A program made the position numbers and the translations under genes. This document shows, piece by piece, positions 186-3,966 of a stretch of DNA of 32,332 bases. Under the pieces are notes generated by a model. That model made no database searches, had not been told where the DNA came from, and was given only the letters and a program-made list of their open reading frames with translations. How positions within the stretch are numbered: position 1 is the first letter of the stretch; each line of letters opens with the position of its first letter. Origin of the DNA: Bacillota bacterium (GTDB lineage: Bacteria; Bacillota; Sulfobacillia; Sulfobacillales; JAIMBI01); the NCBI GenBank assembly GCA_021846505.1, contig JAJZWV010000043.1, positions 1 through 32,332 on the forward strand, written 5' to 3'.

Positions 186-374
186 GGGGGTCACCTCCTA
201 GAACGGATAAACCCAGTGTGCCCCCAACTCTTCCAATAAGTCAACATCTAAGAATGGATCTACTAGATAGCATGACAGCACCCGCCCCCACTCATCGCAA
301 GTGCCGCGGGCTACACTACCGACGCGCGGGAACGCGAAAGCGTGCAGAGCCGCATACGATGGGAGGCTGGTGCT

Positions 375-1315
375 ATGAGCGAGTATACCCGGTTTGTGGC
401 GTTCGATGTGAGTGCCGCGACGATCGCGGTGGCGGTGGCGGCACCGGGCCGCACGCCCGCGGTGGATGCGGGCGTGCGGGCGGCGGACGCGGCTGCCGTG
501 CGGCAGGGGGTGATGCGGCAGCCCGACCGCGGCACGTTGCTGGCGTGCTACGAGGCGGGGCCGACGGGGTTTGGCCTGCAGCGGCAGTTGACCGCCTTGG
601 GGGTGGCGTGCCAGGTCATCGCGCCGGGCTTGGTGCCGACGCGGCCGACGGACCGGGTGAAGACGGATCGCCGGGATGCGCGCCATTTGGCGGACGCCCT
701 GCGGGCCGGGACGCTGACGCCGGTGCGGATTCCCACCGAGGTGGAGGAGGCCTGTCGGGACTTGGTGCGGGCGCGGACGACCGCGGTGCAGGTCCGCCAG
801 CGGGCGCGCCAGCGGGTGAAGAGCCCGCGGCTCCGCTAGGGGCTGCGACCCGCCGGGGGGCCGCCGCGTGGGGGCCGTCCTACCGGACATGGCTCCGCAA
901 GGTGGCGCCGACGCCGGCACCCCGGGACGCGGTGTGGGTGGCACTGCTGAGCCAGCTCGCCGAAGCGGACCGTCGGGTCGACCGCTTGACCCGGCAGATC
1001 GCGGCCGCCTGGCCCACGCACCCGCTGGCGCCCCTGATGCGGGCCTGGCAGGAGCTCCGCGGCGTGGACTGGCTCACGGCCGCCACCCTGGCCGCGGAAC
1101 TCGGCGACCGGGCGACCTTCCCCGAGCCTCGCCACGCGATGGCCTGGGTGGGCCTCGTGCCGTCCGAAGCATCCAGCGGCGTCACCCGGCACCAGGGTGG
1201 GCTCACGAAGACCGGCAACGCCCCCCTGCGCCGGATCTTGGGGGAGGCGGCGCACAGCTATCGGTTCCGCCCGCGCACCGACGGACCCGTGGGGCGTGGG
1301 GCGGCCGGTGAGTAG
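375..1315 (+). pseudogene. IS110-family transposase, frameshifted and 3'-truncated
   Basis: The ATG at 375 follows GGGAGG at 361-366. The first frame (375-839) encodes the IS110 DEDD nuclease domain: FVAFDV, then CYEAGPTGFGL, then VKTDRRDARHLADAL. Around 830 the frame changes. The C-terminal transposase_20 domain then continues in the next frame to 1315 (RGVDWLTAATLAAELGD, AMAWVGLVPSE, TKTGNAPLRRILGEAAH). The protein stops soon after the usual SYRFRP motif, so the last tens of residues are missing or scrambled. IS110 elements use a recombinase-like transposase and usually lack terminal inverted repeats, and none was seen. The 3' end abuts the broken protease gene on the other strand, which suggests that this insertion removed the end of that gene. 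Confidence 0.85.
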
Positions 1316-2419
1316 GGCGGGAGGGTAGTGTGGTAGGCCGGACTCGAGGTCGACACGACCAGCGGGGTCTCGGTGATGGCATCGGCCGAATTGTTCGGAT
1401 AGGTGCCCGCGCAAGTGAAGTACTGCCAGCCGGTGCTGTCGCCATTGCCCCCATCGAGGGCGATGGCCTTGTACTTGAAGTACAACGTGCCGCTGACCTT
1501 GGCCGCGCCGATGTAATCGACTTGGCTCCAGATGTCATCCCCCGGGGCAAAGCCGCCAATGTTGTCCTTGTAACACAGGCCGTTGGAGCTGGACAGCCCT
1601 TAGACGAACAGGCTGCTCTGCTTGTCGCCACTGCTTTGACTGCTCCTGATGTAGTAGCGGCGTATCCCCCCGGCCTGCGCCAGGCCCGTGTTGCCGTTGA
1701 CGGAGGTGTACCCCCCAAGGCCCACCCACTGCGCGATGCCTTGGCCATAGGACAGCATATACGCGGTGGTGGCCATGTGAAACTGGGCTTGAATGCCGCT
1801 GTACGTCGCCTGGGTGTCGACGTATCCGGCCCAGTTGGGACCGGGTGCCGTGGAGGTATGCCAGGCGCTTCCCGGCGGCACGACACTGGCGGGCCGGCTG
1901 TTCTGATAGTGCAGACGGGGCAGCAAGCTGCGCACGCCCGCAAGTCATGCGGCGTATTGGGGGGTGTCCTTGGCGGCCGCCGGCAGCGGCAGGCCCGCGC
2001 GCGTCAGCTGTGCGTTGGTCATCGTGGACGGGTTAAGCCCGCTCTCGGCCCCTTTCGCGAACGAGCGGGTGGCCGAGTATCCCCACCCCACGCCGAGCCG
2101 CGCCAAAGGCGCCGTGGCGCTAGCCGGAGGCGCCGCGGTGAACTGGACCCACCAGCTGGTGGGTGAGACATTGGACACGACGGTGCCCCCTGCCGGCAGC
2201 GACGCCAAGCTGGGATACTGCCGCAGGGCTTGGGCCAAGGGAATGGCGGTCGGTTTGGGCAACCGGATGGACCCGGCGGCCGACAATCCTGAAACGGTTG
2301 CGGGGCTGGTCACGGCGTGAGGGTCAGTGGCCCCCCCGTGAAGCGGCAGGCTGCATCGCTATCAAGGCCGCGCTGGCCGACAGCGCCAGGCCTACACCAA
2401 GCCAAGCGTGATGACGCAT
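1316..2419 (-). pseudogene. secreted G1 (eqolisin)-like glutamic protease, disrupted
   Basis: Reading leftward from ATG 2419 (ribosome site AGGAGG just upstream) gives a signal peptide starting MRHHAWLGVGLALSASAALI. An extra C in the plus-strand C7 run at 2331-2337 shifts the frame. The next frame holds a pro-domain (SLASLPAGGTVV, WWVQFTAAPP) and then a G1-like catalytic domain: GPNWAGYVD, AQWVGLGGY, LAQAGG, FAPGDDIWSQV, ADAITETP. An in-frame TGA (1945-1947) and TAA (1600-1602) interrupt it. The 3' end is lost against the IS110 remnant near 1316. G1 peptidases are acid-active secreted enzymes using a Gln/Glu pair. The Gln is plausible in LAQAGG; the usual AEWI Glu appears as Asp (ADAI). Family assignment rests on these motifs alone. 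The gene follows 2431-2886 as the second gene of an operon. Confidence 0.6.
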
Positions 2420-2430
2420 GATGTTTCCTC

Positions 2431-2886
2431 CTACTGCCCCCAGTTGGGGAGAGGTGGATTCGGGGGCTGTCCTTTCATGGCGAAGTAGCCGGGCAGCGTC
2501 TCCGAAAACACGAATTGGGTCGGCCGCGCGGGTGTCTGTGGTCCCAGGCTGTATCCAAAGCCCCCCGGGTCCACGGCCAGCACCTTCGCCAGCAGGCTCA
2601 TGGGTGGATCCGCGGTGAAGTGCAGGCTCCAGGTGCAGGGCATGTACCAGGTGTGAAAGCCCGATCCGATGAACGTGACGGTCCCGCCGTCAGGCAAGTT
2701 GTTGAGCACCGGCACCTTTTTGGCCGCTGCGGCAAAGGGAAGCCCGCCCTGCGGACACGTAGTGCCCAGGGCTGCCGTTTCGCGAATAGGCTGCCGCCGG
2801 GCCGCATGAGGCGTGCTGCCCGCACCCCCGGCCAACAGCCCCACCAGCGCCAAGCCCGGCACGGCGAGCCAGTATGAACGACGCAT
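2431..2886 (-). CDS. secreted protein sharing the pro-domain of the adjacent G1-like protease
   Basis: This is a 151-residue protein starting at ATG 2886 behind an AGGGAG site (about 2897-2902). Its signal peptide begins MRRSYWLAVPGLALVGLLAG. The mature part (LNNLPDGGTVTF, WSLHFTADPPMS, AVDPGGFGYS) aligns by eye with the N-terminal domain of the neighbouring protease (LASLPAGGTVV, WWVQFTAAPP, GVGWGYS), but no catalytic domain follows. It may act as a stand-alone propeptide, an inhibitor or an exported scaffold; no function is known. Its TAG stop is part of the ribosome site of the protease gene 12 bases on, so the two form an operon. The reading frame also stays open upstream into a helicase remnant, giving a spurious 386-codon fusion. 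The signal peptide and promoter show the real start is 2886. Confidence 0.65.
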   Translation of the reverse strand: MRRSYWLAVPGLALVGLLAGGAGSTPHAARRQPIRETAALGTTCPQGGLPFAAAAKKVPVLNNLPDGGTVTFIGSGFHTWYMPCTWSLHFTADPPMSLLAKVLAVDPGGFGYSLGPQTPARPTQFVFSETLPGYFAMKGQPPNPPLPNWGQ

Positions 2887-3065: not shown

Positions 3066-3094
3066 AGTATAGATCTGACGCCCCGCCCATGCAA
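3066..3094 (-). promoter_or_regulatory. sigma70-like promoter for the secreted-protein/protease operon
   Basis: On the minus strand TTGCAT (3089-3094) and TATACT (3066-3071) are separated by exactly 17 bases. Transcription would start near 3058, leaving a leader of about 170 bases before the ATG at 2886. It supports separating this operon from the helicase remnant upstream. Confidence 0.5.
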
Positions 3095-3227
3095 AATCTG
3101 GCACTTGCTTTACACGCCATGGGGTGTGAAAGTTTGCTGAGCGTGATGCACACGGACGACGGCCCACTGCCTTGGGAGAATCGGGCGGCAGAGGTCGCCT
3201 GTCGCGTGACGCAATTGGAGGTTCCGC

Positions 3228-3420
3228 GCTGCCGACTTGCCCAATGCGCCAACTCTTCGCGGTGCACCACAAACAGCGTACGGCGCGGGACGCGCTGGGA
3301 GAGCGCGGCGGCGACAATGGTCTTGCCCGCCCCGGTGGGGAGCACCAGGAGAGGCCGCCGGGTCTGGCCCGCCGGAACGGCAGCGACAGCTGCCTCCTGG
3401 TACAGCCTTAAGGCCAGCAT
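3228..3420 (-). pseudogene. superfamily-2 helicase, N-terminal remnant only
   Basis: The ATG at 3420 is preceded by GAGAGGAG. About 60 residues look like the start of a DEAD/DEAH helicase: MLALRLYQEAAVAAV (Q-like region), then LPTGAGKTIVAAALS (Walker A, motif I), then TLFVVHREELAHWA (motif Ia). After that the homology ends and the frame runs on into the promoter region of the next gene. All later helicase motifs (DEAH, SAT, motifs IV-VI) are absent, so this is a truncated gene whose start signals happen to survive. It lies next to transposition-ATPase fragments, consistent with loss by rearrangement. Confidence 0.7.
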
Positions 3421-3572
3421 GGCGTCACTCCTCTCTCTGGTCCCCGCAGTGCTGTAGAGCCTCACACGGTCTGGCCGCCCGGGTCCCACGCTCGCTGACC
3501 GCGTCGGGGGACAGGAGTGCGGGGCGACGCGTACGTCGCCCCGCACCGGGGACCGGCTGCCGCCGCCCGGGG

Positions 3573-3966
3573 TTACACCGCCCCCGCCCACTGGAGCTCG
3601 GTCGCCGCCGTCGCGGCGACGGTATCGTCAACCAAGGTGAGCTGGCGGGCGTACGCCGCCATTAAGCAGGCCCGCGCCCAGGTGTTGAGGTGCCGGGGGA
3701 TCCCGTGCGACCAGTCCCACCCGGTTTGCAGCGCCGCGTCTCTGAACATCGGGCGGTCCACGCCCACCTGCTGGAGCGGGTGGGTCACATAGGGCCCCGC
3801 CTCCGCCGCCGTCAGCGGCGGCAGATGGTAGCCCACCGTCACCCGCTGGCGAATGGCCTCCAGCGGCCGCCGCGCGAGCTTGTGGCGCAACTCCGTATGC
3901 CCGCACAAGAACAGCGCCCCCGGGGCCGTGCGGTCGAGGTGGCAGCTCAAGAGTTATCGGGAATTC
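3573..3966 (-). pseudogene. ExeA/TniB-like AAA+ ATPase, C-terminal fragment (copy 1)
   Basis: The fragment reads GALFLCGHTELRHKL, EAIRQRVTVGYHLPPLTAAE, QQVGVDRPMFRD and HGIPRHLNTWARACLMAAYA, ending at 3573. This is the sensor and lid half of the ExeA-like ATPases that accompany DDE or Mu-like transposases in many Bacillota. Walker A and B are missing because the fragment begins at a GAATTC junction (3961-3966) facing a second copy on the other strand. No lesion is seen inside the retained part. Confidence 0.7.

What the first reader, a model, noticed from the sequence alone, without database searches (positions are those of the whole stretch)
1316..2886. A secreted domain found both stand-alone and as pro-domain of a G1-like acid protease
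The 151-residue secreted protein and the N-terminal part of the neighbouring protease share the pattern LP.GGTV, then W..(H/Q)FTA.PP, then G(F/W)GYS. The stand-alone copy is intact, has its own promoter and overlaps the protease ribosome site. This looks like a protease sold with an extra propeptide, either an inhibitor or a folding helper, a pairing I do not know for bacterial G1 relatives.
Basis: partly seen in the sequence, partly recalled or inferred. Interest (0 to 1): 0.62.

Follow-up and report, generated by a model that had tools for sequence, protein, structure and literature searches.

The report
Stand-alone twin of protease pro-domain
A bacterial gene for a small secreted protein sits directly before a gene for a G1-type (glutamic) acid protease and is related to that protease's own front domain; the pair recurs in sister species, so the small protein may keep the protease in check, but every protease copy found is damaged and no experiment has been done.

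Summary
On the minus strand, a 151-aa secreted protein (2886-2431) and the front domain of the next gene (about 2271-2050) are homologous (hhalign 96.5%, E 7.6e-10; 0 of 5000 shuffles). Its stop codon overlaps the protease ribosome site by one base. The downstream protein is a divergent G1 (eqolisin-type) protease. Pfam misses it, but its profile matches bona fide G1 proteins (E 6e-16), and the catalytic Gln and Glu align. The same gene pair, in the same order, occurs in two congeneric genomes. Both proteins evolved under purifying selection (dN/dS about 0.2). The domain has no Pfam or NCBIfam match. In 154 genomes of the class it occurs only in one family, plus one contig-edge fragment. Stand-alone copies carry a conserved Cys pair that the protease copies lack, and occur in a sister genus without an adjacent protease. 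The window's protease is a pseudogene: a frame shift at a G7 tract after the signal peptide, TGA, TAA, and a 3' truncation beside an IS110 remnant. The relatives' protease copies are also interrupted. Best reading: a stand-alone, disulfide-stabilised pro-domain homologue, probably inhibiting (or helping fold) the co-secreted protease. New for G1 enzymes, but a known kind of arrangement. Function is inferred only.

The parts
2431..2886 (-). Intact small gene: 151-aa secreted protein, stand-alone copy of the domain; Cys44 and Cys84 conserved in all stand-alone copies
   Evidence: intact ORF; homologues in 4 other genomes
2500..2781 (-). The shared domain within the small protein
   Evidence: profile match 132.5 bits, E 1.4e-38 (this sequence is in the profile); independent of circularity: hhalign of small-only versus pro-domain-only profiles E 7.6e-10
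3066..3095 (-). Promoter-like site TTTGCA-18-TATACT about 180 bases upstream of the small gene, in a stretch partly alignable with the two congeners
   Evidence: consensus match only
2427..2431 (-). Shine-Dalgarno GGAGG of the protease gene, overlapping the last base of the small gene's stop codon
2324..2419 (-). Protease signal peptide ORF, MRHHAWLGVGLALSASAALIAMQPAASRGGH then TGA; in a different frame from the mature protein
   Evidence: same arrangement in two congeners
2331..2337 (-). G7 tract at the signal peptide / pro-domain junction where the frames part (G8 runs in both congeners, same relative shift)
2050..2271 (-). N-terminal extra (pro-)domain of the protease, homologous to the small protein, without the Cys pair
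1830..2040 (-). Linker / pro-segment of the kind seen in related G1 proteins (NPSTMTNAQLTRAGLPLP...), interrupted by TGA at 1945-1947
1298..1833 (-). G1-like catalytic region with candidate catalytic Gln (codon 1675-1677) and Glu (codon 1369-1371); TAA at 1600-1602; similarity to congeners ends at about 1298
342..1315 (+). Degenerate IS110-type transposase remnant (reading-frame break) abutting the protease 3' end
   Evidence: translation; family named from general knowledge of transposase sequences, not from a profile search

Best explanation
The pair is a small operon. The first gene makes a secreted, stand-alone homologue of the protease's N-terminal pro-domain. The second makes a G1-type acid protease carrying that same domain between its signal peptide and the usual short G1 pro-segment. 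Most likely mechanism: the covalent copy holds the zymogen inactive and is lost on acid activation, as in other glutamic-peptidase zymogens. The free copy is made just before it from the same message and is probably locked by a disulfide. It survives outside the cell and binds the protease in trans as an inhibitor or regulator that protects the producer. Shown: homology, gene order, coupling geometry, G1 relationship, past purifying selection. Inferred: pro-domain role, disulfide, inhibition. In this genome the protease gene is now broken, so the small gene is an orphan unless it acts on one of the genome's other G1 proteases.
For: Domain homology. G1 relationship by profile-profile comparison with PF01828-related bacterial proteins, E 6e-16, with Q and E aligned. 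Same pair and order in two congeneric genomes, L008/L034 and L007/L033. dN/dS 0.21 (small) and 0.19 (protease) between the window and a congener. Stop codon/ribosome-site overlap in the window and, with different bases, in both congeners. Two Cys conserved in all stand-alone copies aligned, absent from the protease copies. [quoted passage not shown] Spi/SpeB and staphostatins/staphopains, co-transcribed inhibitor and protease (PMC3462683). Glutamic-peptidase zymogens activate at acid pH (PMC3009609, PMC9343461).
Against: No complete, unbroken protease of this subfamily was found in any genome searched. Stand-alone genes in the sister genus are not beside a protease, and G006 has no protease of this subfamily, so the domain may do something not tied to it. 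Structure prediction failed to give a usable model, so no contact with the active site can be argued.
Confidence: 0.45

Rival explanations
1. The stand-alone domain is a folding helper in trans (an external intramolecular-chaperone copy) for the protease rather than an inhibitor.
For: It is translated immediately before the protease from an adjacent frame. Pro-domains of secreted proteases often aid folding, and neprosin could not be made without its pro-domain (PMC9343461).
Against: The protease already carries its own copy, so a second in trans is not obviously needed. The stand-alone copies persist where no subfamily protease is found, as in G006.
Confidence: 0.2
2. The domain is a general secreted module (for example a surface- or polymer-binding domain) used both alone and fused to the protease; it has nothing to do with zymogen control.
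For: Stand-alone copies outnumber fusions and occur without the protease. No other G1 in these genomes has the domain. No family match tells its role.
Against: Strict adjacency with coupling in all three genomes that have the fused copy. The fused copy lies between the signal peptide and the usual G1 pro-segment, where it would be cut off on activation.
Confidence: 0.3
3. The gene pair is phase-variable: slippage in the poly-G tract between signal peptide and pro-domain switches protease secretion on and off, and the assemblies happen to hold the off state; or the frame is bridged by programmed slippage.
For: All three genomes have a G7-G8 run at the same site, the same relative frame shift, and a stop codon two codons later, while both sides show purifying selection.
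Against: Each copy also has private lesions elsewhere (window: TGA, TAA, 3' truncation; G001: shift at QAGG; G002: shift at LP/GGTV), which point to decay. Tracts of 7 occur five times in this window. No reads or variants could be examined.
Confidence: 0.12
4. Mere remnant: the whole locus is dying in this genus and neither gene is functional today.
For: Protease broken in the window, G001 and G002, and cut at its 5' side next to an IS3-like transposase end at a contig edge in G004; small gene frame-shifted in G001; a truncated extra copy on contig C53 of the own genome.
Against: Small gene intact in the window, G002, G004 and G006; dN/dS 0.21 and, between the two closest species, 0.15 over 108 codons.
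Confidence: 0.25

Closest known systems
Peptidase family G1 (eqolisins; PF01828), e.g. scytalidoglutamic peptidase, aspergilloglutamic peptidase, bacterial pepG1 (PMC3009609)
   Same: Catalytic-region profile match; Gln and Glu of the catalytic dyad aligned; short LT..GLP-type pro-segment before the NWAGY start as in related bacterial G1s
   Different: Too divergent to score against Pfam; additional N-terminal domain of about 75 residues; window copy is a pseudogene
Stand-alone propeptide-like protease inhibitors (MEROPS I9 such as SUB1-ProM, TgMIC5; I29 such as CTLA-2alpha and BCPI)
   Same: Small secreted protein homologous to a protease N-terminal domain; like SUB1-ProM, encoded beside protease genes
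   Different: Unrelated sequence; the target would be a glutamic peptidase; inhibition not shown
Spi/SpeB and staphostatin/staphopain gene pairs (PMC3462683)
   Same: Bacterial protease gene next to a gene for a small cognate inhibitor, one transcription unit
   Different: Those inhibitors are described as cytoplasmic and act on cysteine proteases; here the small protein has a signal peptide
Neprosin (glutamate-class peptidase with an all-beta pro-domain; PMC9343461)
   Same: Glutamic peptidase with a sizeable pro-domain released at acid pH
   Different: No stand-alone pro-domain described in the passages read; sequences not compared here

Membership tests
Peptidase family G1 / PF01828 | Sequence profile match to the family | tested here: inconclusive
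   No Pfam or NCBIfam hit, even at E 10, but profile-profile match to five PF01828-related bacterial proteins at 98.6%, E 6e-16
Peptidase family G1 / PF01828 | Catalytic dyad Gln and Glu | tested here: met
   Q213 and E315 of the window read-through align with the conserved Q and E of the other G1 proteins
Peptidase family G1 / PF01828 | Beta-sandwich fold of the G1 type | tested here: inconclusive
   AlphaFold model mostly strands but pLDDT 51; Foldseek gave no significant match
Peptidase family G1 / PF01828 | Acid-pH, pepstatin-insensitive peptidase activity | not testable with these tools
   needs enzyme
Stand-alone propeptide-like inhibitors | Homology to the N-terminal domain of a protease precursor | tested here: met
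   hhalign 96.5%, E 7.6e-10; z 11.3
Stand-alone propeptide-like inhibitors | Encoded and exported without a catalytic domain | tested here: met
   151-aa ORF with an N-terminal hydrophobic signal sequence and its own stop; four more stand-alone genes; export itself is read from the sequence only
Stand-alone propeptide-like inhibitors | The homologous domain is removed from the mature protease | not testable with these tools
   needs N-terminal sequencing of mature enzyme
Stand-alone propeptide-like inhibitors | Inhibits the cognate protease | not testable with these tools
   needs assay

The most novel reading that the evidence does not exclude
A first propeptide-derived inhibitor system for glutamic (G1) peptidases: a new domain family, used both as covalent pro-domain and as a disulfide-locked free inhibitor in one operon, with secretion of the protease switched by a poly-G tract between signal peptide and pro-domain.
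Probability: 0.1. Interest if true: 0.65.

Novelty: new variant of a known kind. Interest (0 to 1): 0.4.

Why it matters
No protein inhibitor of G1 peptidases turned up in the literature searched here. If the small protein binds the protease, this would be a genetically encoded one, and a further class of protease for which the pro-domain-set-free strategy has evolved. It also defines a small secreted domain without a Pfam entry, confined almost entirely to one family of uncultured Bacillota.

Tried and rejected
Pfam and NCBIfam scans of both proteins: nothing. PDB sequence search with the domain and protease profiles: nothing significant. Structure route: models too poor (pLDDT 45.7 and 51.3). 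Foldseek/VIA rows for the small protein are alpha-beta plaits at Z up to 6.1, no better than background for such models; [quoted passage not shown] Foldseek on the protease model: no G1 hit, inconclusive. Viral contigs and plasmids: none. Phylum sample of 398 genomes: none beyond the own genome (first-look candidates were capped per genome). Wholesale assembly error as the cause of the broken frames: canonical G1 ORFs of the same MAGs are intact, but contig coverage is low (2.65x for L033, 7.4x for L034), so single errors there cannot be excluded. Domain tree: stand-alone and protease copies separate, but no branch is strongly supported.

Full report
What is there. On the minus strand the window holds a 151-residue ORF (2886-2431) followed by a protease-like gene whose ribosome site (GGAGG, 2431-2427) shares one base with the small gene's stop codon. 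A sigma-70-like site lies at 3095-3066, inside the only upstream stretch that aligns with a congener. The small protein has an N-terminal hydrophobic signal sequence and no lipobox (sequence reading).

Is the similarity real? Yes. The small protein finds the N-terminus of the neighbouring protease in the whole own genome at E 8.2e-4. A profile of four stand-alone proteins alone matches a profile of protease N-termini alone at 96.5%, E 7.6e-10. Local alignment scores 91 against a shuffled mean of 30 (z 11.3, 0 of 5000). The conserved core is A-x(4)-P-x-L-x-x-LP-x-GG-T ... W-x(3)-FT-x-x-PP.

Is the neighbour a G1 protease? Probably a divergent one. Pfam and NCBIfam do not see it. But its profile matches related bacterial proteins, including intact PF01828 members from the same and sister genomes, at 98.6%, E 6e-16, over the pro-segment and catalytic region. 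The two catalytic residues (Q213, E315 of the read-through) sit in the conserved columns.

State of the genes. In the window the protease is a pseudogene: the signal peptide frame ends at a TGA just after a G7 tract (2331-2337), the rest is in another frame, TGA at 1945-1947 and TAA at 1600-1602 interrupt it, and similarity to congeners ends at about 1298 next to a degenerate IS110-type transposase. In the two congeners the pair is in the same order, but the protease again changes frame after the signal peptide at a G8 run, in the same direction. Each also has a private frame break (G001 at QAGG, G002 at LP/GGTV), and the G001 small gene is frame-shifted near GGFGYS. In the sister genus, G004 has a catalytic-region homologue without stops that starts at a contig edge next to an IS3-like transposase end. 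A truncated copy of the protease front lies on contig C53 of the own genome.

Selection. Codon comparison of in-frame pieces gives dN/dS 0.21 for the small gene and 0.19 for the protease between the window genome and G002. Between G001 and G002 it is 0.15 over 108 codons of the small gene and 0.30 for the protease. So both proteins were under constraint for most of the divergence, with the protease perhaps relaxing recently.

Distribution. In 154 genomes of the class the domain is found in five genomes of one family and as a contig-edge fragment in one other family. A sample of 398 genomes of the phylum adds none. Among named genomes the relatives are four Bacillota MAGs (DS3.bin47, TL1-2.bin2, TL1-5.bin82, YP2.bin78). 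The sister-genus copies (L009, L010) are stand-alone, with signal peptides and no protease beside them. None of 10 intact canonical G1 ORFs from these genomes carries the domain.

How it most likely works. The fused copy sits between signal peptide and the usual G1 pro-segment, so it is best read as an extra pro-domain. The free copy, translated just before the protease and carrying a conserved Cys pair that the fused copy lacks, is best read as a stable trans-acting partner, most likely an inhibitor (inference). Precedents in other catalytic classes are SUB1-ProM (PMC6993865), and Spi/SpeB and the staphostatins (PMC3462683). Glutamic-peptidase precursors activate at acid pH (PMC3009609, PMC9343461). 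A folding helper and a general binding module remain open.

Limits. Structure prediction was uninformative. No intact pair was seen, so functionality today is uncertain. The pro-domain role and inhibition are untested.

Noticed in passing
window 2331-2337; L008 about 2060-2070; L007 about 935-950 (-): Poly-G run (G7, G8, G8) at the signal peptide/pro-domain junction of the protease in three species, with the downstream frame shifted the same way each time and a stop codon two codons after the run; shared old lesion, phase-variable tract or programmed slippage.
   Followed up: partly
L023 (G000:C53) about 1501-1635: Second, truncated copy of the protease signal/pro-domain in the own genome, fused to unrelated sequence.
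   Followed up: partly
L018 (G097:C215) 1-132: Fragment of the same domain (GEVPLARAVKEDANLRHLPAGGQVYVVNGVWAVKFASRP) at a contig edge in another family of the class; what follows is unknown.
   Followed up: no
L040 (G004:C44) 1-130: IS3-like transposase end directly upstream of a G1-like catalytic region in the sister genus, where the pro-domain would be.
   Followed up: partly
window 342-1315 (+) and 3300-3950: Degenerate IS110-type transposase on one side and a helicase-like fragment and an AAA/ExeA-like fragment on the other: the pair lies in a decayed, mobile-looking stretch.
   Followed up: no
L003/L005 (G000:C60 about 61900-62430): Another G1 gene of the own genome is split over two frames near a contig end; intact relatives are L062 and L063 in the congeners.
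   Followed up: no
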